From: Paenibacillus sp. MBLB1832
Lineage (GTDB): Bacteria > Bacillota > Bacilli > Paenibacillales > NBRC-103111
Assembly: GCF_032271945.1 (NCBI RefSeq)
Contig: NZ_CP130319.1
Span: forward strand, 2,809,001-2,873,000
Direction of reading: 5' to 3'
Length of the DNA: 64,000 nt
The translations under genes were made by a program, and so were the position numbers. Below the pieces are notes generated by a model. It worked only from the letters and a program-made list of their open reading frames with translations. It was not told where the DNA came from and ran no database searches. Positions 2,041 through 61,214 of the stretch are shown here, piece after piece (within the stretch, counting starts at the first letter, position 1; every line of letters begins with the position of its first letter).

Positions 2041-2070
2041 CTCAACTAACGGGCAGTTTAGTTGAATAAC
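2041..2070 (+). repeat. Lone right half-site at the start of the array
   Basis: CAACTAAC-GGGCAG-TTTAGTTG is a near-perfect 8-6-8 palindrome matching the right half-site of all later cassette sites. No left half-site or hairpin is seen before it. It is the first such site in the window and precedes the T-box/thrS unit, so it could be a primary (attI-like) site or the end of a deleted cassette. Confidence 0.6.
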
Positions 2071-2104
2071 ATATAATTCCTATTTTTCGTTAGGAGAGAC
2101 AAAA

Positions 2105-2492
2105 TAAATAAATACTGAATTTTTGAACTGTATGATCGGGAAGCAGATTACCAATCCTTGACAGAGTGAGAATATGTATGTAATATAATCCTATTGGCGC
2201 TGACCAAAGACATGATTTCCTTCACGAACTGCCCAGAGAGAGAAGCATTCGCTGCGAGCTTCTTCAGTAAACGGATTGAAATTACCCCTTTGTAGCCGTG
2301 GCGTTGAACGCGTCGGTCCTTCTTGGATGACGTAAGTATGCGGCACCGTCTGATCCCCGTTACCGGATACTTATGAGGACTTGTAGCAGCTTTCTTTGGT
2401 CGAAACCGGGAATAGCTTGCCGCAGGTTGAATTAGGGTGGAACCACGAGTTGAACGCACTCGTCCCTTTCTGGGATAGAGGCGTTTTTTTGC
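2105..2492 (+). promoter_or_regulatory. T-box leader of thrS
   Basis: The untranslated leader before thrS holds the conserved T-box sequence AGGGTGGAACCACG at 2434-2447, followed by a stem that runs into TTTTTTT at about 2485-2491 (the terminator competing with the antiterminator). Upstream, the AGAGAGAGAAGC...GCTGCGAGC segment near 2230-2262 resembles conserved stem I elements. An ACC triplet, a threonine codon, lies in the following GAAATTACCCC stretch near 2281 as the likely specifier. Known T-boxes of this kind raise expression when tRNA-Thr is uncharged. The exact fold is inferred. Confidence 0.85.
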
Positions 2493-2533
2493 GTTCAATA
2501 CGTTCTAATAACGAAGAAATGGAGGCTACAATC

Positions 2534-4447
2534 ATGGAGATCAAAGTAACATTGCCAGATGAAACAGTTAGGAGGTATCAACAAGGAACCACCGTGGAGC
2601 AAGTGGCGGGCTCTTTGGGGACGGGACTTAGAAAGAGTGCGATAGCTGGGACAATCAATGGCAAGCTCGTTGATCTGGATCAACCGATCGACCATGATTG
2701 CCGCCTGGAAGTGATAACACTCGCTGACGAGGATGGTTTAATGATCTATCGGCACAGTACAGCTCATGTAATGGCGCAAGCGATTACGCGAATCTATGGA
2801 CAGCAAGTCGTGAATCTGGGGATTGGGCCGGTTATCGAAGATGGGTTCTACTACGATATTGATATAGAAAAGCCGTTGTCGACCGAGGATTTGAAGGCAA
2901 TCGAGAAGGCAATGCAGCAGATTATCCAAGAAAACCTCCCCATTGTCCGGCGCGCGGTAAGCCGTGCGGAAGCGATACGTACGTTCGAGGAACTGGATGA
3001 GCCGTTGAAATTGGAGTTAATCGGGGCATTGCCAGATGATGCCGTCATTACAATCTATGATCAAGGTGAATTCATGGATTTATGCCGGGGGCCGCATTTG
3101 CCTTCAACAGGTAGAATTAAAGCTTTCAAGCTGCTCAGTGTGGCCGGGGCATACTGGCGCGGAGATGCGAATAACAAGGTGCTGCAGCGTATATATGGAA
3201 CAGCCTTTCCGAGTAAAACCCAACTCGACGACCATCTGTTTATGCTGGAGGAAGCGAAAAAGCGCGACCACCGCAAGCTGGGGAAAGAACTGGAGTTGTT
3301 TATGTTCTCGGAGGAAGCGCCGGGAATGCCATTCTACTTGCCGAAAGGGATGACGATTCGCACAGCACTAGAGGACTTTGCACGGGATATTCAGCGGAAA
3401 CTCGGGTACGATGAGGTACGGACACCACTTATGATGAATAACCGGATATGGGAGCAATCCGGACACTGGGATCATTACAAGGAAAATATGTATTTCACTA
3501 ATGTAGACGAAACGAAATTCGCGCTTAAACCGATGAACTGTCCAGGCCATATGTTGATTTATAAAAATGATCTGCATTCCTATCGTGAGCTGCCTATCCG
3601 GCTTTCGGAATTCGGCCAAGTGCACCGCCATGAGTTTTCAGGTGCGCTGGGCGGAATGATGCGGGTCCGCACCTTCTGCCAGGACGATGCGCATCTATTC
3701 GTCTTGCCGGAGCAAATCGAAGATGAGATCAACAATATTATGGAGTTGATCGACCATGTCTATCGCGTATTTGGTTTCGAGTACAGAATCGAGCTCTCGA
3801 CTAGGCCGGAAGATTCGATGGGGGCGGAAGAGTTATGGGACCAAGCGGAGCAAGCGCTTAAGAATGTGCTGGACAACCGCGGAGCCGCGTATCGAATCAA
3901 TGAGGGTGATGGGGCCTTTTATGGGCCGAAAATTGATTTTCACATTCTCGATGCGCTAAAGCGGAGCTGGCAGTGCGGAACGATCCAGTTGGATTTCCAG
4001 ATGCCTGAGAAGTTCGATCTCACGTATATCGGCGAGGATAATCAGAAGCATCGGCCCGTTGTGATCCACCGTGCTGTCTATGGCTCGATCGACCGCTTCA
4101 TGGGTATTCTGACCGAGCATTACTCAGGTGCTTTCCCACTCTGGCTTGCGCCTGTGCAGGTGAAGGTGCTGCCCGTTTCGGAGCGGTACAACGACTATGC
4201 TTTCCAAGTGAAGAAAGAGCTGGTTGAGGCTGGAATCCGAGTAGAAATCGACGCGCGGGAAGAGAAGCTCGGATACAAAATTCGTGAAGCGCAGCTTGAG
4301 AAAACGCCGTATATGCTCGTGCTTGGCGAAAGCGAGAAGGAAACCCGGAATGTCTCGGTCCGCAAACGGGGCGAAGGCGACCTTGGCGCTATAACCTTGG
4401 AAGTATTCATAACTCAGCTGATGGAAGAGCTTCGACCGCTTAACTGA
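2534..4447 (+). CDS. thrS: Threonyl-tRNA synthetase
   Basis: Charges tRNA-Thr with threonine in the cytoplasm. The 637-residue product has the full bacterial domain order: N-terminal TGS domain (about 1-62), editing/SAD domain (about 65-220, with HSTAHVMAQA), class II catalytic core with the zinc-site motif MNCPGHM, motif 3 near RPVVIHRAVYGSIDRFMGIL, and a C-terminal anticodon-binding domain. The start at 2534 (MEIKVTLP) is chosen because GGAGG lies 7-8 bases upstream. It sits between a lone right half-site (2041-2070) and the first complete cassette site (4518-4614), so gene plus T-box leader have the layout of a cassette. Many Bacilli carry a second, inducible ThrRS; whether this is the housekeeping copy cannot be told here. 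Confidence 0.95.
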   Translation: MEIKVTLPDETVRRYQQGTTVEQVAGSLGTGLRKSAIAGTINGKLVDLDQPIDHDCRLEVITLADEDGLMIYRHSTAHVMAQAITRIYGQQVVNLGIGPVIEDGFYYDIDIEKPLSTEDLKAIEKAMQQIIQENLPIVRRAVSRAEAIRTFEELDEPLKLELIGALPDDAVITIYDQGEFMDLCRGPHLPSTGRIKAFKLLSVAGAYWRGDANNKVLQRIYGTAFPSKTQLDDHLFMLEEAKKRDHRKLGKELELFMFSEEAPGMPFYLPKGMTIRTALEDFARDIQRKLGYDEVRTPLMMNNRIWEQSGHWDHYKENMYFTNVDETKFALKPMNCPGHMLIYKNDLHSYRELPIRLSEFGQVHRHEFSGALGGMMRVRTFCQDDAHLFVLPEQIEDEINNIMELIDHVYRVFGFEYRIELSTRPEDSMGAEELWDQAEQALKNVLDNRGAAYRINEGDGAFYGPKIDFHILDALKRSWQCGTIQLDFQMPEKFDLTYIGEDNQKHRPVVIHRAVYGSIDRFMGILTEHYSGAFPLWLAPVQVKVLPVSERYNDYAFQVKKELVEAGIRVEIDAREEKLGYKIREAQLEKTPYMLVLGESEKETRNVSVRKRGEGDLGAITLEVFITQLMEELRPLN

Positions 4448-4517
4448 TGTCATGTAAGAAGGACTGCCCAATGATTAGTGGCCTCCTGCTTTTCGAAAGA
4501 AAAAGGGTTGTGGGATT

Positions 4518-4614
4518 AAGCTTACGTAGGAACGTTAGTTGAACATTGACACAGCGGCAGCCGGCTCTGACCGGCTGCCGTTTTCCGTTAAAGTAATGGG
4601 CGGGGTAGTTACAA
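4518..4614 (+). repeat. attC-like site 1 (complete)
   Basis: Left half-site GCTTACGTAGGAACGTTAGT, hairpin CGGCAGCCGG/CCGGCTGCCG, right half-site AGTAATGGGCGGGGTAGTT. First complete site, directly after thrS. Confidence 0.8.
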
Positions 4615-4646
4615 AAAGTGGTATTATTATTGTGAGGTGATTAATA

Positions 4647-5273
4647 TTGAGGTGGTTACAAGGGGGACCTTTTTTAGAACTAAGCTTTATATTTAATGAA
4701 CCAATGAAAATCGAAAAAGTAATCGCTAAACTGATTAATACTAACGTCAAAATAGAAGTGCACAACTCACCAGAACATATTCAGCAATTTTACGAGGGTT
4801 ATCCTTATGACGAGGATGATCCGCACAGTGTGATGATCCATCGAATCGAAATCAACTTAACTGTGCACACAACCCGACAACGGAGAGCTATACTATTTGT
4901 TGAGAAAATAAGTTTGGAGTTATTATCATTTTCAATGTGTTTTTTCGGAGATAAAGATGATGCCCCAGAGTGGAATCAGCCAGGTATAAGAGATGATGAG
5001 CTTGATGAGATTATCTGTTTATTAATCTCACTCTATAGAGAATTAAAGTTTAGTGTGGGTGGTCTAGCAATTGAAGAAGATATGAAAGGTTTGTTTAATG
5101 TTAATAAAGTATGGCCAAATGAAAAATATAACTTTGCAAATCTTACTTTCAAAGATAACCTACATAAGTTTCAAGCTATCTTAGTAAATCAATCTTTAAA
5201 TGAAAAACTGCCTGAAGGACAGTACACTCTAATAGATAATTCTTGTATTCTTTATCGAAACGCATTGAACTAA
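4647..5273 (+). CDS. Hypothetical protein
   Basis: A 208-residue soluble protein starting with TTG behind a GAGGTG ribosome binding site. I do not recognise its family. It is acidic, without signal peptide or membrane segment, and has an aromatic/acidic stretch (YEGYPYDEDDPHSV) near residue 50. Single gene between cassette sites 1 and 2. The stop codon TAA is the TAA of the left half-site that follows (GAACTAACG), a typical cassette-end arrangement. Confidence 0.75.
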   Translation: MRWLQGGPFLELSFIFNEPMKIEKVIAKLINTNVKIEVHNSPEHIQQFYEGYPYDEDDPHSVMIHRIEINLTVHTTRQRRAILFVEKISLELLSFSMCFFGDKDDAPEWNQPGIRDDELDEIICLLISLYRELKFSVGGLAIEEDMKGLFNVNKVWPNEKYNFANLTFKDNLHKFQAILVNQSLNEKLPEGQYTLIDNSCILYRNALN

Positions 5274-5352
5274 CGTAAGAACGATAGTTTGATGACGGAA
5301 TTTGGATTATCCATCTTAAATGATTGAAGCTGCCAATTGGGAGCTTCATTTG
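5266..5352 (+). repeat. attC-like site 2 (left half and hairpin)
   Basis: Left half-site GAACTAACGTAAGAACGATA, then GAAGCTGCC/GGGAGCTTC hairpin with T-run. No right half-site is recognisable. The same arrangement precedes the paralogous cassette at 57468. Confidence 0.65.
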
Positions 5353-5400
5353 TATTTTTTTGGATATGCTATTTATATATAGAGAAAGGGGGAAAATCAA

Positions 5401-5877
5401 TTGAAGAATAACAAACCAGTAAAATTGGAGGATCTAAGTAGTGAGATTGAGCTTCAAATTGATGATACTTTTACTTTTATAAATACTAATACAGGCGAAG
5501 TTATTACATTAATGAGAGAAGAAATGAGAGCTGCAGAAGATGAAGAACCACTTGAAAAATTCCCTGACTGGCAAAGAGAGAATATTGAAAAAGCTATCGG
5601 CATAATTGAGGATGATGATGGAGTTTACGTGGACTTTACATTAAGAAACAACTTCAATGAATATGAAATCATGGAGGAGTTTATTGTAAGTCATCAGGAT
5701 CAAAAAAATAGAGGAGTACTGTATAACGCCATTCAAGGAAGAGGCGCTTTTCGAAGATTTAAAGATAAAATAATAGAACTTGGAGTTGATAAGCAATGGT
5801 ACACATACAAAGAAAGTAAGATAAGGCAATTAGTAATTGAATGGTGTAAGGAGCACAACATAACAATCCAGGATTAA
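5401..5877 (+). CDS. UPF0158 family protein (intact copy)
   Basis: The 158-residue protein matches UPF0158: an N-terminal segment ending in FINTNTGEVITLMREE, a helical acidic middle, and a C-terminal block GRGAFRRFKDKIIELGVDKQWYTYKESKIRQLVIEWC typical of the family. Function is not established for the family. The start is TTG at 5401 behind AGAAAGGGGG. A second, frameshifted copy with the same upstream region lies at 57468-57942, so this cassette has been duplicated within the array. Confidence 0.85.
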   Translation: MKNNKPVKLEDLSSEIELQIDDTFTFINTNTGEVITLMREEMRAAEDEEPLEKFPDWQRENIEKAIGIIEDDDGVYVDFTLRNNFNEYEIMEEFIVSHQDQKNRGVLYNAIQGRGAFRRFKDKIIELGVDKQWYTYKESKIRQLVIEWCKEHNITIQD

Positions 5878-5887
5878 AAAATGGATA

Positions 5888-5948
5888 TTGAGGCTGCCGC
5901 GGTATATGTCGGTAGCTTCATTACGTTAACGGGCAGGATAGCGTGGAA
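5888..5948 (+). repeat. attC-like site 3 (hairpin and right half)
   Basis: GAGGCTGCCGCGG..GTCGGTAGCTTC hairpin followed by GTTAACGGGCAGGATAGCGT. The left half-site is not recognisable. The paralogous cassette at 57957 has the same defect. Confidence 0.7.
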
Positions 5949-6014
5949 ACTATCTTGAATAAATGATTAATAAATATGCGAAGCGTTACCAACCGTATTC
6001 GGAGGTGATATTTG

Positions 6015-6473
6015 ATGGCAATAGGGGATTATCAATTTATTCTTTATCCAATAGGAAATTCGCCTATTTTAACGGAAGATGGAATGGAATTTGTTGGACC
6101 TAATTATTTTAACTTTGTCCAAGCAGTCAAAGAGCTCGAGAAATTACGTTATATGAAAAATGACCCAACCTTGAAAAGTTGGAACTCATTCGATGATGCG
6201 TGTTATTTTGTCTATAACGACGGGAAGTACAAAGTTGAAATTGAACTAAATACAGGTACTATAGCTGAAGAGGCTGAAATGATATCTGTCAGAACTAATA
6301 TTTATAAAGTAGAAGGAAATGTAACTGAAGCATTACATATTTGCAGGATATTATGCGATTCCTTGAACTTATGTTGCTGGGGTATGAAACTTCGCAAAAT
6401 TGTTAATTTGAATGATATTCAAGATGTAAATGCTACAATTAATAACTTCAATAAGCTAAGAAACAAGTATTAA
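6015..6473 (+). CDS. Hypothetical protein
   Basis: A 152-residue soluble protein. The ATG at 6015 is preferred to the TTG at 6012 because of GGAGGTG about 10 bases upstream. Visible features are an N-terminal beta-rich part (GDYQFILYPIGNSPILTEDG) and a Cys-containing helix near residue 112 (HICRILCDSLNLCCWG). Family not recognised. Size and setting resemble small immunity-type proteins, but nothing specific proves this. Confidence 0.7.
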   Translation: MAIGDYQFILYPIGNSPILTEDGMEFVGPNYFNFVQAVKELEKLRYMKNDPTLKSWNSFDDACYFVYNDGKYKVEIELNTGTIAEEAEMISVRTNIYKVEGNVTEALHICRILCDSLNLCCWGMKLRKIVNLNDIQDVNATINNFNKLRNKY

Positions 6474-6485
6474 TTCAAAACATCG

Positions 6486-6545
6486 TTGAGCTAACGCAGG
6501 AACGATATTTAAATTAACCGCCATTTCAAAGGGCGGTTTTCTTTT
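6486..6545 (+). repeat. attC-like site 4 (left half, terminator hairpin)
   Basis: Left half-site GAGCTAACGCAGGAACGATA followed by ACCGCC/GGGCGGTTTT, a terminator-type hairpin. The right half-site is lost. Confidence 0.6.
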
Positions 6546-6713
6546 GGGGTAAAAAACAACATTAAGATTTAACATACCCTTGAATAAAGGAGTTATATTA
6601 CGTTGTTGCTAGCGCCAGTCTGAAACTTCTTATTTCGTAATAAAATGGTAGGAATTCCCCTTGGAAGGCAAATACTAAAACGCCTCAATCCAAATCATAA
6701 AAGGAGCTTGATA

Positions 6714-7727
6714 ATGAAAGAGAAATTCGTATCCATCACGTTAGCACTAATCCTATTATTTTCTAGTATCCATACTGCAATAGCAGCCCCTTCAGATACC
6801 ACACCTGCCGTTTTCATCGATGGTAAGAAGATCACGTTTGAGGTTCCGCAGACCGTAATTAACGGGTCGACACTCGTTCCGATGCGAAAAATTTTTGAAA
6901 GCTTGGGTGCTTTGATAGAATGGGAGGGTAGCACTCGAACTGTCACTGCTAAGAAAGGCGATATTACGATAACTTATGTGATTGGTGATACCATGGCAAA
7001 GAAAAACTCCGCTGATATTGCCTTATCTGTGCCAGGTCAGATTGTTGACGGATCTACTCTTGTACCACTCCGTTTTGTAAGTGAGTCCCTTGGTGCGACA
7101 GTCGGTTGGGAAGGAGCAAGTCGCACGATTACGATCTCTTCGGCAGTGAAGGTAATTACGAAAGTTAAGCGTGTGGTCGATGGTGATACGGTAAAAATCG
7201 ATTGGAACGGAAAGGAAGAATCGATCCGTTTAATTGGAGTCGATACAGCGGAGTCTGTTCATCCTGATGCGACGCGAAATTCGGAGCTTGGTAAGATAGC
7301 TTCCGACTATACGAGAAAAGAACTGACCGATGCCAGTATCTTTATAGAAGTTGATGTCGAGGAACGCGATAAGTACGGTCGTCTCCTTGGGTACGTGTAC
7401 CTTGCAGATGGTACGTTTTACAATGCAAAGTTAGTCGCGGAAGGCTACGCCCAACTGGCGACATTCCCACCAAATGTACGATGGGTTGAATTGTTCCGTC
7501 ACTTGCAGACGGATGCTCGCAGTGAAAATCGCGGATTATGGGCTAAATTACCGGCATCACCGGCACCGACAGTTAATTACGATCCTAATGGTCCGGACCG
7601 CGATTGTGGTGACTTTGCAACGCATGAAGAGGCACAGGCTTTCTTTATCGCGGCGGGTGGACCGGAAAAAGATCCACACCGTTTAGATGCTGATAAGGAC
7701 GGCTTGGCGTGTGAAGCGCCAAAATAA
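6714..7727 (+). CDS. Secreted thermonuclease with CuAO-N and Excalibur domains
   Basis: Predicted extracellular nuclease of 337 residues. Order: signal peptide (1-24, cut near AIAA), a copper-amine-oxidase N-terminal domain (about 30-145; paired STLVPMRKIFESLGA and STLVPLRFVSESLGA motifs, usually a cell-surface adaptor), then a staphylococcal-nuclease domain (about 147-285; VVDGDTVKI, IRLIGVDTAES, ERDKYGRLLGYV with the usual Arg/Asp/Glu residues), and a C-terminal Excalibur calcium-binding motif (DRDCGDF...DADKDGLACE). The start at 6714 follows AAGGAG. It probably degrades DNA/RNA outside the cell. Single-gene cassette. Confidence 0.9.
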   Translation: MKEKFVSITLALILLFSSIHTAIAAPSDTTPAVFIDGKKITFEVPQTVINGSTLVPMRKIFESLGALIEWEGSTRTVTAKKGDITITYVIGDTMAKKNSADIALSVPGQIVDGSTLVPLRFVSESLGATVGWEGASRTITISSAVKVITKVKRVVDGDTVKIDWNGKEESIRLIGVDTAESVHPDATRNSELGKIASDYTRKELTDASIFIEVDVEERDKYGRLLGYVYLADGTFYNAKLVAEGYAQLATFPPNVRWVELFRHLQTDARSENRGLWAKLPASPAPTVNYDPNGPDRDCGDFATHEEAQAFFIAAGGPEKDPHRLDADKDGLACEAPK

Positions 7728-7761
7728 ACTGAGCAGCAAATCATTGAGACTATGATAACAA

Positions 7762-7786
7762 GAGCACCTTCGGGTGCTTTTTCTTT
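7762..7786 (+). terminator. Terminator after nuclease gene
   Basis: AGCACC-TTCG-GGTGCT stem with a UUCG loop and a T-run. Confidence 0.8.
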
Positions 7787-7925
7787 AGGGGTTGATGCTT
7801 GTGCTATCTAAACCGAAACGCTCAGCCATCAGCCAGGATGCAAGTACCTAACCGATCAAGGATACTGCGATAACCACAAGAAAGAATCAAGTCAGTATAT
7901 TTTTGCAATTACTAATTATTTCATA

Positions 7926-8009
7926 ACACTAACGGTTACGATAGTGCAGGAGTTGCCTTGTAGAAGCTCCTCTTTTATTCGTTCAAGTAACGGGAGTTTT
8001 CTTCAATAG
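7926..8009 (+). repeat. attC-like site 5 (complete, diverged)
   Basis: Left half-site CACTAACGGTTACGATAGTG, hairpin GGAGTTGCC..GAAGCTCC, right half-site AAGTAACGGGAGTTTTCTTC. The interval 7787-7925 before it shows no gene. Confidence 0.7.
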
Positions 8010-8074
8010 CAACACTTGCTAAAATATATACACTAACACCTGATTTACCAAATTACCGCGGGGGTAAACGAATC

Positions 8075-8491
8075 ATGAGTTACTATTTATTGGTATTTGA
8101 AAATACGAGAGTTCCAAAAACAAAGAAAGAGTTTATGTCTTGGTATGAAAACTTAACAACTTGGGGTGAAGATGTAGACTATAACGAGATATCACACACA
8201 ACTATGTCACTACAAAATTGGTTTCAAGAAAGTATCAAGTCATTTCCTGCTATGAACGGTTCATTTGCACCATCTGATGAGGAATTTAATGGGAATGAGG
8301 AGCTTGAGGAAAGATTAACTGATTATTGTGTTGCATCGAATGCTATTTACATGGCCTTTGCATGGTCAGTAGCTGAAAAGGCGTACGAACATGTTCGCAT
8401 GTTAGCAACTAAGCATAATGTTGGTTTTTTCAATGTCAGTAGTGATAATGGTGAAATTATTCTTCCAGATGGTTTAAAAATTGAGTGCTGA
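8075..8491 (+). CDS. Conserved hypothetical protein
   Basis: A 138-residue acidic soluble protein. The opening YYLLVFENTRVPKTKKEFMSWYE, the middle SLQNWFQ..FPAMNG and the end VGFFNVSSDNGEIILPDG match my memory of a widespread family of small proteins near polymorphic-toxin immunity genes, but I cannot name it. No membrane segment. ATG start; the ribosome binding site is weak (GCGGGGG upstream). Single-gene cassette. Confidence 0.75.
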   Translation: MSYYLLVFENTRVPKTKKEFMSWYENLTTWGEDVDYNEISHTTMSLQNWFQESIKSFPAMNGSFAPSDEEFNGNEELEERLTDYCVASNAIYMAFAWSVAEKAYEHVRMLATKHNVGFFNVSSDNGEIILPDGLKIEC

Positions 8492-8553
8492 GGGTGTCGT
8501 GCTTTACATCGGCTCCTTTTCGATTGTTGAACGAAAGGGCAGAATAGCGTGAT
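8489..8553 (+). repeat. attC-like site 6 (hairpin and right half, diverged)
   Basis: Weak hairpin after the stop codon, then right half-site GAACGAAAGGGCAGAATAGC. The left half is not recognisable. Confidence 0.55.
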
Positions 8554-8617
8554 AAAGGTTATGATACGATTGAAATAGTAAATTCAATTTTTCAAATCAC
8601 ATTTTGGGGGAAATGTT

Positions 8618-8924: not shown

Positions 8925-8968
8925 GCTACCAGAAGTAGTTATAGAGAAGTTCGAGGGGGTCAAATGAA

Positions 8969-54220: not shown

Positions 54221-54223
54221 AAC

Positions 54224-54358: not shown

Positions 54359-54461
54359 CTATCTTCACCTCTTTTCTAAATAATGTTAGGGAAGGGCGGG
54401 AGGAACCTTCCCTTCAAATACCATTAGTCATGAATATCTCTAAGGTGTAACATTATTATGG

Positions 54462-55307
54462 GTGATGAAGAAAATGTTTATTCCTCCAATGTTACTTCAA
54501 TACAGTAAAAACAATCTTCCGTTTGACGATTCTTCCATGCTGGCCGAATTAAAATGGGACGGAATAAGGCTGATCGTTTCAAACTTGGATGAACTAAATT
54601 TATATACGAAGAGCACGAATGCAACGGCGAAATACCCAGAGCTTCACAATCCTCCGATCCCCAAAGGGACAATTCTTGATGGGGAAATGGTCGTGCTAGA
54701 TGAGCAAGGCCGCGCGGACTTTGAAGCTACGAACGCGGGTTTTAGATCACGTAAGAAGCGGCAACCAGTAGTATTTATGGCTTTTGATATCTTAATGCAC
54801 CGCGGCGTAGATGTTACGGCAGTGCCACTTGAGCAGCGCAAGCAGCTACTTTATGAGACGGTTCAGGAGAATGAACATTACCGGATTGTGCGGCCTGTTG
54901 ACGGCAGCTCCAAATCTTTCTTTGATCTAGTGTGTAAGCATGGGCTCGAGGGCATAGTCGTTAAGAAGAAAATGAGTAAGTACGAGAGAGCTCAGCGCTC
55001 TTGGTCCTGGCAAAAGGTGATTAACTATCAGCAGACAGAAGTCTTCATAACAGGTTATAGCAAAAAGGAACACTCATGGCTGCTTGGCTATCCAGATGGT
55101 GACCGGATCCACCCGATCGGTGCAATGGAACTAGGAATAACACCGTCAGCGCGGCAGTCGATGTGGCCTGTGTTTCAAGCTTATAAGAGTGGAGAGAGCA
55201 AGGATCACGTCTATGTGCAGCCAGTTGTACGCTGCAAGGTGAAGTATCGGGATTGGTATAAGTCCGGAGCGATGCGGTTGCCGGTGTTTGAAGAGTTTAT
55301 TGTTTAG
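54462..55307 (+). CDS. ATP-dependent DNA ligase (LigD-like)
   Basis: A 281-residue ligase that would seal DNA nicks. Adenylation motif I is LKWDGIRLIV with the active Lys at about residue 31; also TILDGEMVVLDE (motif III), AFDILMHRG, GLEGIVVKKK (motif IV) and SWSWQKVINYQ (motif V), followed by an OB-like part. Such small ligases work in non-homologous end joining or spore DNA repair in Bacilli; no Ku gene is here. It lies in a 2-kb stretch (54.0-56.0 kb) with genes on both strands and no internal cassette site. The start could be the second or third Met. Confidence 0.9.
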   Translation: MMKKMFIPPMLLQYSKNNLPFDDSSMLAELKWDGIRLIVSNLDELNLYTKSTNATAKYPELHNPPIPKGTILDGEMVVLDEQGRADFEATNAGFRSRKKRQPVVFMAFDILMHRGVDVTAVPLEQRKQLLYETVQENEHYRIVRPVDGSSKSFFDLVCKHGLEGIVVKKKMSKYERAQRSWSWQKVINYQQTEVFITGYSKKEHSWLLGYPDGDRIHPIGAMELGITPSARQSMWPVFQAYKSGESKDHVYVQPVVRCKVKYRDWYKSGAMRLPVFEEFIV

Positions 55308-55310
55308 GGG

Positions 55311-55469
55311 ATGAGATCGTTGGAATACCGCGTAAAGCACAAGGTAACAGGCGAAGATAAGACGTTGACTGCTTCAGAAATGAATGACATGATGCATGGC
55401 GATTCTGGCGAGATCGTAGTGTTTGATACAGAAATGGAAGCTTATATATTGCTTGATGATATCTGTTAA
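55311..55469 (+). CDS. Small hypothetical protein
   Basis: A 52-residue frame beginning 3 bp after the ligase stop (ATG; AGGGG overlaps the ligase stop). YRVKHKVTGEDKTLTASEMNDMMHGDSGEIVVFD, acidic and hydrophilic. Probably co-translated with the ligase. Confidence 0.55.
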   Translation: MRSLEYRVKHKVTGEDKTLTASEMNDMMHGDSGEIVVFDTEMEAYILLDDIC

Positions 55470-55555
55470 TTGGTACAAAGTGGCTGCGTACAACTCCCTT
55501 TAGATGAGTAAAATATTTATGCTTTTAAATCACTCTGATGAGGCGGGCGATATCC

Positions 55556-55678
55556 ATGTCTATAAAACCAGAAACAAACCAAAAGAAAATGCAACAAGTA
55601 AATCACGCAAAAGACCAGGATGACAATAAACCGAATCAAAATAGCAGCAGAGAAAAAAAGAAACACAAAAATCAGTAA
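55556..55678 (+). CDS. Very small Lys/Gln/Asn-rich protein
   Basis: A 40-residue frame behind GAGGCGGG: MSIKPETNQKKMQQVNHAKD followed by a basic tail (REKKKHKNQ). The composition recalls small spore-associated proteins, but there is no clear motif. A strong terminator follows. Confidence 0.45.
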   Translation: MSIKPETNQKKMQQVNHAKDQDDNKPNQNSSREKKKHKNQ

Positions 55679-55692
55679 TAATGTAACAATTA

Positions 55693-55729
55693 AAAAAGCC
55701 CTTGGGGATGCTTTCCCTCAGGGCTTTTC
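55693..55729 (+). terminator. Terminator
   Basis: AAAAGCCCTTGGGG..CCCTCAGGGCTTTT, near-symmetric stem with A- and T-runs, so it can work in both directions. Confidence 0.8.
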
Positions 55730-55796
55730 ACTTTGTACGGTGCTTCTAGTTGATTTGTAATTGTAGGTGAAAAGTCCCTCATTGAAGCTTAGCTAG

Positions 55797-55940
55797 TTAC
55801 GGTTCATCAATATATTCTTCTTCGCTCGGAATACTGTTCAAAAGGTTATTATCTTGTTTCACATCTTGCTCGGTATCGCAGTTAACAATACACTTCATTA
55901 TTTCTTCGGAGTTGTCTTGAATATTAGTGTAATCAACCAT
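55797..55940 (-). CDS. Small acidic protein
   Basis: A 47-residue minus-strand frame, ATG at 55940 with GGAGGT about 8 bases upstream. Acidic with two cysteines (MKCIVNCDTEQDV). Function unknown. It converges on the ligase operon. Confidence 0.5.
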   Translation of the reverse strand: MVDYTNIQDNSEEIMKCIVNCDTEQDVKQDNNLLNSIPSEEEYIDEP

Positions 55941-56012
55941 CCATGTACCTCCTTTCATCGAAATTAGATTTTCCAATATCAAGAAAATTATTCGATTAGT
56001 GATTTGGATGCT

Positions 56013-56043
56013 TCCATTAAAGTAACAGGCAGTAGAGTTGATC
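56013..56043 (+). repeat. attC-like site 54 (right half only)
   Basis: AAGTAACAGGCAGTAGAGTT. Closes the 2-kb non-cassette-like interval. Confidence 0.6.
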
Positions 56044-56060
56044 AACTAACGTGCTAATTC

Positions 56061-56069
56061 TGGTACAAT
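56061..56069 (+). promoter_or_regulatory. Extended -10 promoter
   Basis: TGGTACAAT, 18 bp after the right half-site. Confidence 0.5.
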
Positions 56070-56104
56070 GTATGTTAACAACTTTTAGTAGGTGAGATGG
56101 AAAT

Positions 56105-56443
56105 ATGACTAAATTATATGTCCGAATTATGCTTACTTTCTGTATTTTGGTCATTGCGATTCCACTTTTCATTTTTGCCTATATCAAGTTTAATCTTCAC
56201 ACTATAGAAACAAAAACGATTCAACATTTGCTGGAAGATAAAGAATTCAATAAGGCAAATATTATGAGTCTTAAAAGCAAATTTGGCAAAGCTCCCTTGT
56301 TTTCTGTAAACGTCGTATTTAAAGATGAACCCGAAGTAGTTTATTACTACAAACTCGGTGAAGATCGATCAATTTTTCAATATTCCCATACAACAATAAA
56401 TAACGCTCAGCATTATACGTATAAACATATTGAACAAAGATAA
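56105..56443 (+). CDS. DUF3139 family membrane-anchored protein
   Basis: The 112-residue protein has one N-terminal helix (about 8-28), then the DUF3139 pattern: TIETKTIQHLLEDKEFNKANIMSLKSKFGKAPLFSVNVVFKDEPEVVYYYK. The soluble part should lie outside the membrane. Function unknown. ATG behind TAGGTGAG. Confidence 0.8.
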   Translation: MTKLYVRIMLTFCILVIAIPLFIFAYIKFNLHTIETKTIQHLLEDKEFNKANIMSLKSKFGKAPLFSVNVVFKDEPEVVYYYKLGEDRSIFQYSHTTINNAQHYTYKHIEQR

Positions 56444-56474
56444 TAAGTCTGATCAATTTAGGGGCAATCCATTC

Positions 56475-56558
56475 CGCTAACGGGAACGATACTTGAGGGG
56501 CTTGCTACGCGGCAGCTCCTCTTTTGTTTATTCAAGTAAAGGGCAGGATAGTTCAATA
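56475..56558 (+). repeat. attC-like site 55 (complete)
   Basis: Left half CGCTAACGGGAACGATACTT, hairpin GAGGGGCTTGC-TACGC-GGCAGCTCCTC, right half AAGTAAAGGGCAGGATAGTT. Confidence 0.85.
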
Positions 56559-56622
56559 TGATGCTTCCCGTAATTTCCCGTTTATGTTATTGTTAATTTT
56601 CAATAGACCATAAAAAAGGTAG

Positions 56623-57189
56623 GTGCTTGTTCTGCATATTGGCGTAGATTTAGACAACACAGTTCTTGATGCCACCTCATCTTACTTGCAATATTATAAT
56701 AAGGCTTCTGGATTATCTTTAGCACCAGCCGATGTTAATGATTATTATTTTTATCGTTTATATGGATGGGACAATGAACAACGTAAAACGGTATATCATA
56801 AATATGGATACGATATTCATTGGAACTCAAAGCCTTTTCCAATGGCAGTAGAAATTTTACAACAGTTATTTGAAAAGCATAAAATATCAATTATTACTGC
56901 TCGTCCGTTACTTTTTCATGAGGTTACCGTTAAGTGGCTTAAACACCATAACATTCCTTATCATAATATTACACTTACTGAAAATAAACTCCAAGAATGT
57001 ATCAGCTCAAAGGTAGACGTGTTAATTGATGATGCACCTCATTACGCAGAGGAGTTTGCCCTTCAAAACAAGCCTATCATTTTGTTTGAACAGCCATACA
57101 ATTCATCGGTTTCTAATGACATAGTGTATCGTGCTTCTAATTGGGTTCAAGTAATAAAACATGTTGATTACTTAGATTCGCTTTCATAA
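56623..57189 (+). CDS. HAD-type 5'-nucleotidase-like protein
   Basis: The 188-residue protein resembles 5'(3')-deoxyribonucleotidases (NT5C type): motif I GVDLDNTVLD, motif II IITARPLLF, and VDVLIDDAPHYAEEF as motif IV with paired acids. It likely removes phosphate from a nucleotide or related compound. GTG start, with AAAGGTAGG overlapping; a slightly later start is possible. Single-gene cassette. Confidence 0.83.
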   Translation: MLVLHIGVDLDNTVLDATSSYLQYYNKASGLSLAPADVNDYYFYRLYGWDNEQRKTVYHKYGYDIHWNSKPFPMAVEILQQLFEKHKISIITARPLLFHEVTVKWLKHHNIPYHNITLTENKLQECISSKVDVLIDDAPHYAEEFALQNKPIILFEQPYNSSVSNDIVYRASNWVQVIKHVDYLDSLS

Positions 57190-57222
57190 TTAAAAAAGAA
57201 GAGAAGAGAAGTTCTATCAAAG

Positions 57223-57249
57223 AAACCACTCCATTGTCTGGAGTGGTTT
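57223..57249 (+). terminator. Terminator
   Basis: AAACCACTCC-ATTGTCT-GGAGTGGTTT stem. Confidence 0.7.
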
Positions 57250-57342
57250 GTTGATTAAATGCTGATATATATTTTGTGTTTAAAATGTACTTTGTGTTTA
57301 GATATATTACGGTGAACCGTAGCATAAATGGAAGTCAGGTCG

Positions 57343-57422
57343 TTAAACTAACGACGAACGATAGTTTGATGAAGATATTTGGATTATCCATGATTGAGGC
57401 TGCTGATAGGTAGCTTCATTTG
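57343..57422 (+). repeat. attC-like site 56 (left half and hairpin)
   Basis: Left half AACTAACGACGAACGATAGT, hairpin GAGGCTGC..GTAGCTTC. Closely matches site 2, including the following GGATATG..TATTTATATAT leader. Confidence 0.65.
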
Positions 57423-57467
57423 TTTTTTTGGATATGATATTTATATATTTGAAAGGGGCAGAATCAA

Positions 57468-57942
57468 TTGAAGAATAAAAAACCAGTAAAATTAGATGAT
57501 CTAATTAGTCAGACTGAAATTCAAATTGATGATACTTTTACTTTTATAAACACTAATACAGGCGAAGTTATTACATTAATGAGAGAAGAAATGAGAGCTG
57601 CAGAAGATGAAGAACATCTTGAAAAATTTTCTGACTGGCAAAGAGAGAATATTGAGAAAGCTATCAGCATAATTGAGGATGAAGATGGGGTTTACGTAGA
57701 CTATACATTAAGAAACAACTTCAATGAGTATGAAATCATGGAGGAGTTTATTTTAAGTCATAAAAATCAAAAAATAGAGAAGCACTGTATGACACCATTC
57801 AAGGAAAAGGAGCTTTTCCAAGATTCAAAGATAGAATAATTGAACTTGGCGTTGATAAGCAATGGTATACTTACAAAGAAAGTAAGGTAAGGCAATTAGT
57901 AATTGAATGGTGTAATGAGCACAATATTGAGTTCCAAGATTA
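57468..57942 (+). pseudogene. UPF0158 family protein, frameshifted copy
   Basis: Second copy of the gene at 5401, very similar in DNA and with the same leader. The homopolymer in CAAAAAAATAG (seven A) is six A here, which shifts the frame after residue 103 and gives a wrong tail of about 20 residues. In the original frame the rest of the protein (GVDKQWYTYKESKVRQLVIEWC) is intact to a TAA at 57940-57942. A real one-base loss or a homopolymer sequencing error are both possible. Confidence 0.88.
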
Positions 57943-57956
57943 AGAACGGATCTAGT

Positions 57957-58010
57957 AGGCTGCCGCGGTTTATGTCGGCAGCTTCATTACGTTAACTCGC
58001 AAATTAATGA
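57957..58010 (+). repeat. attC-like site 57 (hairpin, decayed right half)
   Basis: AGGCTGCCGCGG..GTCGGCAGCTTC hairpin as in site 3; right half GTTAACTCGCAAATTAATGA is mutated in the GGGCAG core. Confidence 0.6.
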
Positions 58011-58172
58011 GAGACTCCATTAATTTGTATTAAGGGAATGCAACGTTTTTTTTATGATAAGTCTATATTGTCCAAAAAGGGAGATACACCGACTGTCTAT
58101 TGTAAGCGGGCAAATTTTACTACCACCGAATCATTTAGAACAAATGCTTAACTTATCGGAAGGGGTCAAAAA

Positions 58173-58745
58173 ATGAAAAAGCTTTTTACGCTTGTATTTA
58201 CGGTAATTCTTATTTGCAACTTAGGAATTAATTTCTACCAATATAAACGTCTTGTTCATTCCTATAATGTTGTGGCAGATAAATTTATCTTTCAACTTGA
58301 CAAGGCAAAGCAAAGTGCGGAAGGAATACAAAAAACAATAGATGAAAGCCAATTGAGTCTTTACGCGGACGATCTATGGTACGCACCCGACCATATTGCG
58401 GATTATGGAAGCCTCTTGGATTCCATGGTGCAAAATTCGACATCATACAAGAGCATACTTTCACACGTAGGGACTGATTTAGCGAATTTCACCCTAGACG
58501 TTTGGAGTAAAAACGGATTGAAACAACCGATTCGTTCAGGAAATAATCCGCTTCCTTCCCCTGTTGATACAGCGAAGCTAAAAGAGGTTTACACTATCTT
58601 TCGTAATCATTTTACCGATTCGATCATACGTCACACAGACTACGAAAAACAAAGACAAGCGCTTTTAGACGCTCATCAAGAGATCAAGAGCAAAGGCTTG
58701 GATCAATTGCTCAAAAATCCAACTATGTTTGACATGGGAATGTAA
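58173..58745 (+). CDS. Membrane-anchored hypothetical protein
   Basis: A 190-residue protein with one N-terminal hydrophobic helix (5-22) and a helical extracytoplasmic domain (KAKQSAEGIQKTIDESQLSLYADDLW, LKEVYTIFRNHFTDSIIRHTDYEKQRQALLDAH). ATG behind GGAAGGGG. Family not recognised. Confidence 0.7.
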   Translation: MKKLFTLVFTVILICNLGINFYQYKRLVHSYNVVADKFIFQLDKAKQSAEGIQKTIDESQLSLYADDLWYAPDHIADYGSLLDSMVQNSTSYKSILSHVGTDLANFTLDVWSKNGLKQPIRSGNNPLPSPVDTAKLKEVYTIFRNHFTDSIIRHTDYEKQRQALLDAHQEIKSKGLDQLLKNPTMFDMGM

Positions 58746-58750
58746 TAATG

Positions 58751-58866
58751 ATGAACTAACTGGCAATCGACAGTTTCTTAGAAAACGGTTCTTTTTGGAT
58801 CAATTAGCAAGGAAATTTACGATAATAGCTTTTGCTTATTAAAGTAACGGGCAGTTTAGTTCCAAT
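58751..58866 (+). repeat. attC-like site 58 (left half decayed)
   Basis: GAACTAACTGGCAATCGACA left half, poor hairpin, right half AAGTAACGGGCAGTTTAGTT. Confidence 0.6.
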
Positions 58867-58869
58867 ATG

Positions 58870-58878
58870 TGTTAAAAT
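58870..58878 (+). promoter_or_regulatory. Extended -10 promoter
   Basis: TGTTAAAAT directly after the right half-site. Confidence 0.5.
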
Positions 58879-58907
58879 GAGTGGGACTAAAATTTGGAGT
58901 TGAAGTA

Positions 58908-59237
58908 ATGACAATTAGCAAAAAAGGGTCAAGAAAGATTATTGTCGGGCAAGAGCCATTCAGATGGGTAATCACTCCATCAGCAAGAGGTATTATTACG
59001 CTAACCGTTCAGCATGATGAAGTGAAAGGGCAATTGCTCCGAGTTGATATAGAGTCAGACATCAACGAATTCTGGGTGGAGTTTCCGAATGTTGAATCAC
59101 TCAATAATAAAATCGTGATGCCTGCTGAAATAGCTTTAATTATTTCGGAGGCAATCATACAGGGGTGGAAACCTAGGGAGAAAGGTGCGTTATTAAGTTT
59201 CAAACATTCAGAAAACAAGCTGTTATCGTTGAAATAA
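58908..59237 (+). CDS. Hypothetical protein
   Basis: A 109-residue beta-rich protein (TISKKGSRKIIVGQEPFRWVITPSARGIITLTVQHD) ending in a helix with IISEAIIQGWKPREKG. I recall similar small unnamed proteins in many bacteria but cannot name the family. ATG at 58908 is chosen because of GGAGTTG upstream. Single-gene cassette. Confidence 0.65.
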   Translation: MTISKKGSRKIIVGQEPFRWVITPSARGIITLTVQHDEVKGQLLRVDIESDINEFWVEFPNVESLNNKIVMPAEIALIISEAIIQGWKPREKGALLSFKHSENKLLSLK

Positions 59238-59337
59238 TAGGAGAGGATAGTTCCAAAACGAGATAACGGCAGCAGGCCAGTCAGCTCAGTCCAACTGAAT
59301 TGAATATATAACTTTTAATGAGGAGAATTAATACTAT

Positions 59338-59412
59338 TGAAGCTTTTTACAAAGGAATTTAAGAAAATTGTTCCATTCAGTTCCCATGGAAGAACGTTAT
59401 ATCTTCCATAAT
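59338..59412 (+). pseudogene. Truncated cassette gene, 24 codons
   Basis: TTG behind GAGGAG opens KLFTKEFKKIVPFSSHGRTL and stops after 24 codons at a TAA. Good ribosome binding site but no protein of usual length, so the cassette gene appears deleted. Around 59240-59290 there are also fragments of a site. Confidence 0.4.
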
Positions 59413-59439
59413 CTGTGGTGCCGCGCTGCAGCATGGATG

Positions 59440-59537
59440 GCTAACGGGAAACGAGAGTTGAATAAACAAACAAACACCACTTGGCTGCCCCGAAAATGAT
59501 TGGCAGCCTCATTGTTTAACTGGCAGGCTGGCAGGAA
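59440..59537 (+). repeat. attC-like site 59 (complete)
   Basis: Left half GGCTAACGGGAAACGAGAGT, hairpin TTGGCTGCC..TTGGCAGCC, right half TTTAACTGGCAGGCTGGCAG. Pre-hairpin words shared with sites 26 and 60. Confidence 0.8.
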
Positions 59538-59602
59538 ACTTCCAAAAGGTGTTGAATTTAGATTGGAGCATTGGAAATGACTTCTCGGGGGAGATGGTTT
59601 AA

Positions 59603-60052
59603 GTGAATGAATTCATAATTACAAAAGTGCATCATCTAGATACCCATAAGCTTAATCTGTTGGTTGATGAGAGTACGAGTGAAGGATTTCGTCACCTCAA
59701 AAGATTGGTAACCGATTATGAAGCTGGAACAAATAAATTCGATTTGGACGGGGAAGCACTCTTTCTAGCTATTAAAAACGGCAATATTGTAGGAGTTTGC
59801 GGATTGAATCAAGACCCGCATTCAGAAAACATAGAAATTGGTCGTGTTCGTCGAATGTATGTCTCACCAAGTGTACGCCGATTTGGGATAGGGCGGATGC
59901 TAATGGACTCAGTTATTGCAGAAGCTAGAAATTACTTTCAAATGCTTGTGTTAAAGACTGATAATCCTGTTGCTGATTTGTTTTATCGCTCAATCGGGTT
60001 TTCGGTAAAAGATGATTCTGAAAATGACACCCATCTACTTCAGTTAGCGTAA
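59603..60052 (+). CDS. GNAT acetyltransferase
   Basis: A 149-residue acetyl-CoA-dependent N-acetyltransferase: EALFLAIKNGNIVGVCGLNQD (beta strands 2-3), VRRMYVSPSVRRFGIGRMLMDSV (motif A with the R-R-x-G-I-G acetyl-CoA loop), and LKTDNPVADLFYRSIGF (motif B). Substrate unknown; drug, toxin or protein acetylation are possible. GTG start behind GGGGGAG. Stop TAA directly precedes the left half-site. Confidence 0.9.
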   Translation: MNEFIITKVHHLDTHKLNLLVDESTSEGFRHLKRLVTDYEAGTNKFDLDGEALFLAIKNGNIVGVCGLNQDPHSENIEIGRVRRMYVSPSVRRFGIGRMLMDSVIAEARNYFQMLVLKTDNPVADLFYRSIGFSVKDDSENDTHLLQLA

Positions 60053-60148
60053 GCTAACGCAGGACGAGAGTTGAATAAACAAACACCACATGGCTGCCGC
60101 GAGAATGTTTGGCAGCCTCATTACGTTAACGGGCAGTAGAGCGTGGTA
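60051..60148 (+). repeat. attC-like site 60 (complete)
   Basis: Left half AGCTAACGCAGGACGAGAGT, hairpin TGGCTGCCGCG..TTGGCAGCC, right half CGTTAACGGGCAGTAGAGCG. Confidence 0.85.
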
Positions 60149-60191
60149 GAACAATTATAGCGTTAGCGGCGTACTCGTACACCCTAATATA

Positions 60192-60200
60192 TGGTAAAAT
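60192..60200 (+). promoter_or_regulatory. Extended -10 promoter
   Basis: TGGTAAAAT about 45 bp after the right half-site. Confidence 0.5.
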
Positions 60201-60237
60201 CAAAATATTATATTGCTAAGGCTAAGGGGTGTTCTTA

Positions 60238-61074
60238 TTGAAAGTATGGTGGCTAGACTATCATCCTGTTTTTAACACTGTAAATTTTGCAAATGATGAA
60301 GATGAGAGAGACGTTAGAGAATTGGTTAAAAAAGCTATTCCAATATCGGATAACTGGGGAAAATATCAAGTAGTATTAGAGAACAAGGAGAAACCATCAG
60401 ATATACTCCGAGAATTGGGTGGCGCTCTTATAGTAAGCGGACGAACAAAGGAAGTCATCTCTCAGTTATCTGATTGCAAAGTTGAATTTCTACCACTAAC
60501 AAGTGTAGATGGTGAATTTTATGTGTTGAATGTATTAACAGTTTTAAATTGTGTTAATCCAAATCATTCAAAAGAAAAACGTTTAAGTTCTGGAAAGTTA
60601 TTGGAATACGTAGAACTTGAGCTGTATAAAGATGTTGTACAAGATAAAGACATTTTTAAAATCATGCTACATGAAGGCGATAGAGTTTTACCTAAAATCT
60701 ACGTTTCTGACCAACTTAAATCATTAATTGAGAATCAACTTGAGGGATTTCAACTTGTTGAGATGTGGGATTCGGAGTTTTCGTGGAAGCAGAAGGAAGA
60801 AAAATATTCAAACATGTGCGAAGCAGTTGATAAATCGTTAAAGAAAACATTTGACTTTGGGAAAGCTGTTGATTTTGTAAAAAACAACAAAGAAAAAGTT
60901 GCGTATAGTGGGAAATGGGCATTAAAAGTTGATGACGAAAATGAAATTTTACTTGGACAACTGCAACTTGATGGAGGTTATATTTGGATTAACCCTGCTT
61001 TTTATCCACCAATTATCTTAGGATTGACATGGGGGACTAAAGAGAAGAGAAATATGCTATTTGGAATATTTTAA
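60238..61074 (+). CDS. Hypothetical protein, possibly Imm11/DUF1629-like
   Basis: A 278-residue soluble protein: KVWWLDYHPVFNTVNFANDEDERDVRELVKK, then DCKVEFLPLTSVDGEFYVLNVLTVLNCVNP (the part that recalls Imm11/DUF1629 immunity proteins), IYVSDQLKSLIENQLEGFQLVEMWDSE, and a C-terminal extension. The N-terminal half fits the immunity family, the last 70 residues less so. TTG at 60238 is chosen because AAGGGGTG precedes it. Last complete cassette of the array. Confidence 0.6.
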   Translation: MKVWWLDYHPVFNTVNFANDEDERDVRELVKKAIPISDNWGKYQVVLENKEKPSDILRELGGALIVSGRTKEVISQLSDCKVEFLPLTSVDGEFYVLNVLTVLNCVNPNHSKEKRLSSGKLLEYVELELYKDVVQDKDIFKIMLHEGDRVLPKIYVSDQLKSLIENQLEGFQLVEMWDSEFSWKQKEEKYSNMCEAVDKSLKKTFDFGKAVDFVKNNKEKVAYSGKWALKVDDENEILLGQLQLDGGYIWINPAFYPPIILGLTWGTKEKRNMLFGIF

Positions 61075-61115
61075 ATTATTGATTTATTAACTAATAATAT
61101 GAAAGGTCATGTCAT

Positions 61116-61214
61116 TACGCTAACGGGTAACGATAGTGCAAAAACAAGGGACAGATCGCCGCGACAGGCAGCTGTCCCTTGTTTCATTGAAGTAACGGGC
61201 AGTAGAGCGTGGTG
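61116..61214 (+). repeat. attC-like site 61 (complete, last of the array)
   Basis: Left half CGCTAACGGGTAACGATAGT, hairpin AACAAGGGACAG..CAGCTGTCCCTTGTT, right half AAGTAACGGGCAGTAGAGCG. Confidence 0.85.

What the first reader, a model, noticed from the sequence alone, without database searches (positions are those of the whole stretch)
2041..61214. Integron-like gene-cassette array of about 50 units in a Gram-positive (Paenibacillus-like) genome
Nearly all genes over 59 kb are on one strand, mostly one per unit, each followed by a repeated element built as left half-site / variable hairpin / right half-site. I count about 50 right half-sites. Cargo is diverse and accessory. This is the layout of a mobile-cassette array such as a chromosomal integron, but integrons are known mainly from Gram-negative phyla, and the half-sites here (CTAACGRGAAACGATAGTT and TAACGGGCAGGATAGTTGAA) are not the classical RYYYAAC/GTTRRRY boxes, although some right ends do contain GTTGAAT. 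It may be a distinct cassette system.
Basis: partly seen in the sequence, partly recalled or inferred. Interest (0 to 1): 0.97.

Follow-up and report, generated by a model that had tools for sequence, protein, structure and literature searches.

The report
Xer-type gene-module arrays in Paenibacillus
A 59,000-base stretch of a Paenibacillus-group chromosome is a string of gene units separated by about 80 short repeated sites; several units shared with other species break at such sites, and a recombinase gene carried inside sister arrays, but not found here, likely moves them, which would make this an integron-like gene-swapping system built from different parts.

Summary
In detail: 46 right (R) and 33 left-type (L) half-sites lie in the window, far above chance. 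The array is not an integron. Each half-site is by itself an inverted-repeat core of Xer type: R is 11-6-11 with spacer GGGCAG, L is 11-7(8)-11. L and R arms show no compensating changes, so nothing supports an attC-like folded strand. Near-identical modules with unrelated neighbours diverge at or inside the spacers. A window module is 96% identical in a species whose matching flank DNA is 65% identical. A Xer-like recombinase family of about 280 residues, with a full catalytic set, lies between an L and an R core in 33 of 74 testable named loci. It was not found in this genome. Relatives of about 50% identity sit in arrays with other spacers in some other Bacilli. Best reading: a dedicated Xer-like recombinase likely shuffles gene modules and terminator-like hairpin modules as double-stranded DNA. 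Recombination was not shown; strain-level gain or loss could not be tested; an indel test between species was largely negative.

The parts
2040..61213 (+). array of gene modules separated by core sites
   Evidence: 46 R and 33 L-type cores
4515..4614 (+). complete site: L core, hairpin, R core
   Evidence: A1
9641..9738 (+). complete site L-hairpin-R
   Evidence: A1
11554..11646 (+). complete site L-hairpin-R
12009..12100 (+). complete site L-hairpin-R
   Evidence: A1
12703..12791 (+). complete site L-hairpin-R
   Evidence: A1
15896..15997 (+). complete site L-hairpin-R
   Evidence: A1
17552..17643 (+). complete site; its hairpin module (65 bp) is identical to that at 47867-47960, flanks unrelated
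19305..19402 (+). complete site L-hairpin-R
   Evidence: A1
20790..20888 (+). complete site L-hairpin-R
   Evidence: A1
31156..31256 (+). complete site L-hairpin-R
   Evidence: A1
32363..32460 (+). complete site L-hairpin-R
   Evidence: A1
33041..33142 (+). complete site L-hairpin-R
   Evidence: A1
36792..36876 (+). complete site L-hairpin-R
   Evidence: A1
46844..46942 (+). complete site L-hairpin-R
   Evidence: A1
47867..47960 (+). complete site; hairpin module identical to that at 17552-17643
50107..50208 (+). complete site; hairpin module 95% identical to that at 61114
51288..51390 (+). complete site L-hairpin-R
   Evidence: A1
52163..52252 (+). complete site L-hairpin-R
53904..54004 (+). 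complete site L-hairpin-R
   Evidence: A1
60048..60147 (+). complete site L-hairpin-R
   Evidence: A1
61114..61213 (+). complete site, last of the array; best genome match of the site model
2040..2067 (+). R core without L
5920..5947 (+). R core without L
7923..7950 (+). core, spacer GGTTAC, without partner
8526..8553 (+). R core without L
9783..9810 (+). R core without L
10177..10204 (+). R core without L
13660..13687 (+). R core without L
15369..15396 (+). R core without L
16857..16884 (+). R core without L
21487..21514 (+). R core without L
21979..22006 (+). R core; degenerate L at about 21905 (by eye, in A1)
25269..25296 (+). R core whose L core is split by the group II intron
27191..27218 (+). 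R core without L
30326..30353 (+). R core without L
34563..34590 (+). single core, spacer GGGAAC, between two genes without hairpin
35630..35657 (+). R core without scored L
36406..36433 (+). R core without L
40984..41011 (+). R core without L
41703..41730 (+). R core without L
42193..42220 (+). weak R core
49490..49517 (+). R core without L
56016..56043 (+). R core without L
56471..56498 (+). core, spacer GGGAAC, followed by a hairpin and the R core at 56530
56530..56557 (+). R core
58838..58865 (+). R core without L
5264..5293 (+). L core without R
6485..6514 (+). L core without R
10673..10702 (+). L core without R
14199..14228 (+). L core with degenerate R (by eye, in A1)
14854..14882 (+). 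L core between two genes
17219..17247 (+). L core between two genes, low score
20357..20385 (+). L core; left border of a module that is 98.7% identical in the array at 3.92 Mb
37421..37449 (+). L core without scored R
52920..52949 (+). L core between two genes
57342..57370 (+). L core
12771..13680 (+). gene module (DUF6882 protein 12863-13597) bounded by R cores; 96% identical in G024 next to the recombinase module
20364..20814 (+). gene module (20428-20775) bounded by L cores, second copy in another array of the same genome
59605..60137 (+). acetyltransferase gene and site, 94% identical in G024 with the 3' break at the R spacer
22582..25224 (+). group II intron inserted in an L core (ends by eye)

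Best explanation
The region 2.0-61.2 kb is a string of gene modules and short hairpin modules separated by about 80 inverted-repeat core sites of Xer type, and a Xer-like recombinase, whose gene lies between two such cores in sister arrays but was not found in this genome, likely cuts and rejoins double-stranded cores to move the modules. Shown here: (1) each half-site is an 11-6-11 (R, spacer GGGCAG) or 11-7(8)-11 (L) core; (2) modules shared by unrelated contexts break at or inside the spacers, left arms going with the left module and right arms with the right one; (3) hairpin modules recur with unrelated neighbours on both sides; (4) the recombinase gene occupies an L-to-R interval in many loci. 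Inferred: that this recombinase is the catalyst, that excised circles are the intermediate, that identical R spacers make R x R exchange the main route for gene modules, and that hairpin modules serve as mobile terminators. Predicted: in this genome the array is frozen unless a recombinase arrives from outside.
For: Core architecture and spacer conservation. Breakpoints: 73 alignment borders picked because both copies have a core of the same type within 40 bp (44 R, 29 L; from 434 alignments) keep identity on the homologous side and lose it across the spacer. In 65 pairs of like hairpin modules identity at R is above the random baseline to the end of the left arm (0.88 against 0.67) and equal to it from the first base after the spacer (0.32 against 0.32); the spacer itself is too conserved to tell. 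Of 187 near-identical hairpin pairs (55 modules) a gapped test finds an upstream flank in common in 1, a downstream flank in 0. Transfer: 96% against 65% identity. Recombinase: a core within 400 bp upstream in 58 of 78 testable loci, 52 of them at 82-107 bp, and 24-71 bp downstream in 45 of 76; 0.69 cores per kb against 0.019 in reversed sequence. In 63 pairs of bracketed units with genes at least 85% identical the leader inside L is shared in 63, the outer flank in 1 upstream and 0 downstream. Catalytic R137, K161, H228, R231, H254, Y263 invariant in 5 aligned. 30 of 31 recombinase-bearing genomes have sites. Relatives of about 50% identity occur in arrays with other spacers.
Against: No recombination was observed. 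46 of 76 site-bearing genomes, this one among them, lack the recombinase at E<=1e-60. In the indel test only 2 of 37 insertions or deletions between homologous loci had cores at all three points, and 33 of 107 recently shared segments (at least 90% identity) end at no core on either side. L spacers vary and differ in length from R, so L x L and L x R exchange would need tolerance of mismatch. 41 of 74 testable named loci did not show both bordering cores, and the stretch between gene and R core was recognisably shared in only 17 of 63 close pairs. The hairpin pairs are not independent: one family holds 19 modules. The divergent recombinase in G073 has no recognisable cores nearby, and 5 of 17 class-level loci have 0 or 1 core.
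Confidence: 0.78

Rival explanations
1. A tyrosine-recombinase transposon with miniature non-autonomous copies: only the L-hairpin-R and L-recombinase-R units move, landing at core-like targets behind genes, and the genes between them are passive.
For: Hairpin and recombinase units both have cores at their ends and mostly unrelated flanks.
Against: Gene modules too are shared with breaks at R or L cores and unrelated flanks; a gene module is 96% identical between species whose flank DNA is 65% identical; some cores separate two genes with no hairpin; 399 of 404 R cores lie on the G-rich strand.
Confidence: 0.12
2. The shuffling is done by the host's own XerC/XerD pair, and the embedded recombinase is only cargo or a regulator.
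For: The R cores have the 28-bp architecture of dif sites; many site-bearing genomes lack the recombinase.
Against: The recombinase gene lies in a fixed place between cores in many loci and species, has a complete catalytic set, and its divergent relatives accompany arrays with changed spacers.
Confidence: 0.07
3. A true integron or CALIN with divergent attC sites.
For: One orientation, about one gene per unit, hairpin sites of about 100 nt, GTTNAAT and ATTNAAC ends; group II introns sit in the sites, as they do in attC sites (PMC7923331, passages).
Against: No IntI over the cut-off; recombinase 86 bits to the IntI model against 192 to XerC; no L/R arm covariation; hairpins recur apart from genes.
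Confidence: 0.02
4. Ordinary dispersed terminators or REP-like elements in a gene-rich accessory region.
For: 100 of 182 hairpins have a T-run at the 3' foot.
Against: Clustered in arrays, breakpoints at cores, recombinase embedded.
Confidence: 0.01

Closest known systems
dif modules (pdif sites, XerC/XerD) of Acinetobacter plasmids
   Same: Gene modules bounded by 28-bp 11-6-11 Xer-type cores with the crossover within the site (PMC13141974, passages seen).
   Different: There the sites bounding a module are inversely oriented, C and D modules alternate, and the host XerC/XerD acts (same passages). Here R cores share one orientation (399 to 5), a dedicated recombinase is itself a module, this array is chromosomal with dozens of cores, and separate hairpin modules exist.
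Integrons and CALINs
   Same: Long arrays of one-gene units in one orientation with a repeated site of about 100 nt, accessory cargo.
   Different: Xer-like recombinase instead of IntI, no integrase found at a head, no arm covariation, hairpins recur independently of genes. IntegronFinder 2.0 reports one complete integron in Firmicutes, in Limnochorda pilosa, and a few CALIN (PMC9024848, passages).
XerA/XerC/XerD tyrosine recombinases
   Same: Best sequence and fold matches: XerD 1a0p E=1.2e-31, XerA 5hxy the top fold hit (model of the homologue P0003).
   Different: Below the curated cut-offs of XerC, XerD and XerA (192/335, 190/330, 186/220 bits); multicopy and embedded in arrays. The fold model is of moderate confidence (pLDDT 79, pTM 0.54).

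Membership tests
Integron | Integron integrase IntI with its extra domain | tested here: not met
   No match over the TIGR02249 cut-off in this genome or in 18 relatives; the array recombinase scores 86 bits of 265, its best stretch covering profile positions 10-181. The extra domain as defining feature: PMC9668308 passage.
Integron | attC sites that fold on one strand through pairing of outer and inner boxes | tested here: not met
   187 complete sites: outer arms z=-1.2, inner arms z=-3.2, i.e. no excess complementarity.
Integron | attI site and promoter at the head beside intI | not tested
   No intI to anchor it.
Integron | Co-oriented one-gene units | tested here: met
   (about one main ORF per R-to-R interval, by eye)
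dif modules | 28-bp core, 6-bp spacer, crossover in the site | tested here: met
   R cores; L cores have 7-8 bp.
dif modules | Inversely oriented sites with alternating C and D modules | tested here: not met
   399 of 404 R cores on one strand relative to GC skew.
dif modules | Recombination by host XerC/XerD | not testable with these tools
   Needs knock-outs.
Tyrosine-recombinase transposon with miniature copies | Recombinase between the ends, unrelated flanks | tested here: met
   33 of 74 testable loci; flanks shared in 1 and 0 of 63 close pairs.
Tyrosine-recombinase transposon with miniature copies | Host genes are not part of the moving unit | tested here: not met
   Gene modules shared with breaks at cores.
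Dispersed terminator/REP elements | Spread over the genome, no array, no recombinase | tested here: not met

The most novel reading that the evidence does not exclude
A third class of bacterial gene-cassette system, independent of integrons and of dif modules: a Xer-derived recombinase that is itself a cassette, arrays of direct-repeat core sites in which genes and terminators are separate exchangeable modules, widespread in Paenibacillales with a sister branch with other spacers elsewhere in Bacilli.
Probability: 0.5. Interest if true: 0.95.

Novelty: new variant of a known kind. Interest (0 to 1): 0.87.

Why it matters
If the system is active it would be a major route of accessory-gene exchange in Gram-positive soil bacteria that integron searches would probably miss, and a compact recombinase with dozens of natural target sites. 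It would also suggest that cassette arrays arose more than once from Xer-type recombinases.

Tried and rejected
Integron reading: rejected on integrase and site tests. Circular-attC signature (right arm of one site matching the left arm of the next): no signal. Consensus RNA structure: none found, so model R1 is sequence-only. Rfam: only group II intron parts in the window and nothing in L309 or L088. Promoter just after R: consensus scan no better than shuffled (6.0% against 6.9%). Gain or loss by indels between loci: 2 of 37 events at cores, a weak test at species level. G073 locus with a divergent recombinase: no cores and no array-like repeat found. Broken recombinase at 4.815 Mb in this genome: another family, no cores nearby, left aside. 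My first flank test for hairpin pairs was ungapped and gave 0 of 187; the gapped repeat gave 1 upstream. My first reversed control for cores near the recombinase used a narrower scan (0.012 per kb); the like-for-like figure is 0.019. Literature: nine searches, listings only, showed no description of such a system in Paenibacillus; only open-access PMC was searched.
Full report
OBSERVATION. The window is G000:C1:2809001-2873000 of a 5.85 Mb genome held as one contig. A weight matrix trained on 44 of the sites gives 46 on the + strand at score 12 or more, 1 on the - strand and 0 in the reversed window. The final scan lists 46 R cores (37 with spacer exactly GGGCAG) and 33 other cores, with 21 L-hairpin-R sites; median R-to-R distance 1066 bp. 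In the whole genome a sequence model built from 21 sites finds 68 matches, by my count 39 in the window, 26 in four further clusters (0.97, 3.92, 4.00-4.02 and 5.65 Mb) and 3 single (150 of 1334 candidates scored).

ANATOMY. Pooling 81 loci of this genome and relatives (1.54 Mb), the R matrix finds 801 hits, counted on both strands because the site is nearly palindromic, against 6 in reversed sequence; at a slightly lower score 969 hits become 521 after a palindrome filter. Each half-site is a whole core: left arm ATTNAACTAAC, spacer, right arm GATAGTTNAAT. R cores have a 6-bp spacer, GGGCAG in 105 of 139 complete sites. L cores have mostly 7 bp, or 8, usually ending in AC, with variable sequence (control 75 reversed hits against 1639 at the last setting, which also counts R cores and both strands). 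Between L and R lies a hairpin of median 42 nt, mean energy -17.1 against -7.3 kcal/mol shuffled; 100 of 182 unique hairpins have a T-run at the 3' foot and 44 an A-run at the 5' foot, so they look like terminators. R cores with at least 5 of 6 spacer bases lie on the G-rich strand 399 to 5.

NOT AN attC. In 187 complete sites the outer arms (z=-1.2) and inner arms (z=-3.2) are no more complementary than shuffled partners, and the arm of a site does not match that of the neighbouring site (z=-0.7, n=158). An attC-like folded strand would need the opposite.

BREAKPOINTS. Among 940 ends of alignments between loci, 39 fall within 35 bp of an R core in both copies and 38 of an L core in both; a random single position is that close to an R or L core in about 2% each. 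At 73 borders picked for having cores in both copies (44 R, 29 L, from 434 alignments) identity follows the homologous side up to the spacer and falls beyond it (the L profile uses the 21 with equal spacer length). Hairpin modules give the sharpest view. Of 187 near-identical pairs (55 modules, the largest family 19) a gapped search of 300-bp flanks finds homology upstream in 1, downstream in 0. In 65 thinned pairs identity at the R core is above the random baseline to the end of the left arm (0.92 against 0.47, then 0.88 against 0.67) and at baseline from the first base after the spacer (0.32 against 0.32); the spacer bases are too conserved in any pair to place the crossover more finely. At the L core it is near baseline up to the spacer and clearly above it from the fourth base of the module on (0.89 against 0.54). 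In the window itself a 65-bp hairpin module is identical at 17552-17643 and 47867-47960 with different genes on both sides. So genes and hairpins behave as separate modules, each bounded by cores. Against this: 33 of 107 highly similar segments end away from cores on both sides, and only 2 of 37 indels between loci had cores at all three points; the loci come from different species, so this is a weak test.

TRANSFER. The module at 12790-13600 is 96% identical in G024, where it adjoins the recombinase module, while a stretch of about 830 bp from the window's right flank is 65% identical there. The module 20357-20814 recurs at 98.7% in the 3.92 Mb array of the same genome.

WIDER DISTRIBUTION. 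In 299 Bacilli genomes (own included), sites at E<=1e-5 occur in 38 and the recombinase in 18. Outside the order 15 have sites, 14 the recombinase, 5 both (hypergeometric P=0.0004 with about 273 genomes). Some loci with relatives of about 50% identity have arrays too: 39 cores in 20 kb in G358, where L has the 6-bp spacer GGGTGC and R the 7-bp spacer GGGGCAG, and the recombinase lies on the other strand. Of 20 loci examined (three plasmids; one chosen for sites only and one with a 92% recombinase fragment), 11 have 5 or more cores and 5 have 0 or 1; 9 control hits in all.

CARGO. Of 48 cargo proteins scanned 23 have no Pfam family at 1e-4. The rest include threonyl-tRNA synthetase, SUFU, SUKH (2), Imm11, AbiGi, NUDIX, GNAT, VanZ-like, Amj, a DNA ligase domain, a nucleotidase and a signal peptidase.

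MECHANISM. Identical GGGCAG spacers would let any two R cores exchange as double-stranded DNA, as in Xer recombination (general knowledge); gene modules with their hairpin would leave as circles and enter other R cores. That L borders also change points to exchange at L too, perhaps with less spacer homology. The catalyst is inferred from position and family. In this genome the array would be frozen for lack of the enzyme.

KNOWN SYSTEMS. dif modules share the core but have inverse sites and the host enzyme (PMC13141974, passages). Integrons share the array form, with only one complete integron in Firmicutes reported by IntegronFinder 2.0 (PMC9024848, passages). Nine searches of open-access papers, seen as listings, showed no description of this system.

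Noticed in passing
window 22582-25224 and six further copies in fetched loci: Group II introns sit in cores at the same place; 7 of 7 five-prime ends found by one intron motif follow a CTAACG/CCAACG-type left arm and spacer start, recalling attC-targeting introns.
   Followed up: partly
G000:C1:4815102-4815916 (L024): Broken tyrosine recombinase in two frames matching the integron-integrase model at 104 and 89 bits, no cores nearby.
   Followed up: partly
window 2396-4447: A threonyl-tRNA synthetase gene is cargo near the left end; a T-box-like leader is seen by eye only (not in Rfam hits).
   Followed up: no
window 5264-5947 and 57342-57993: Two copies (88%) of a module with a UPF0158-like gene, the second with a shortened frame.
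   Followed up: no
window 28556-29608, 43949-45304, 45473-46795: An IS1595-type transposase and two further minus-strand ORFs, IS110-like by eye only, interrupt the array.
   Followed up: no
L309, L310 (G358): Arrays of a branch outside the order with L and R spacer lengths swapped and the recombinase on the opposite strand.
   Followed up: partly
L307 (Sporosarcina psychrophila plasmid), L306 (Peribacillus simplex plasmid): Plasmid-borne relatives of the recombinase near cores, with mercury-resistance genes between cores in one and two neighbouring recombinase genes in the other.
   Followed up: no
L083, L084, L095, upstream of the recombinase: In some copies the leader between L core and recombinase looks, by eye, as if it held a small minus-strand gene.
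   Followed up: no
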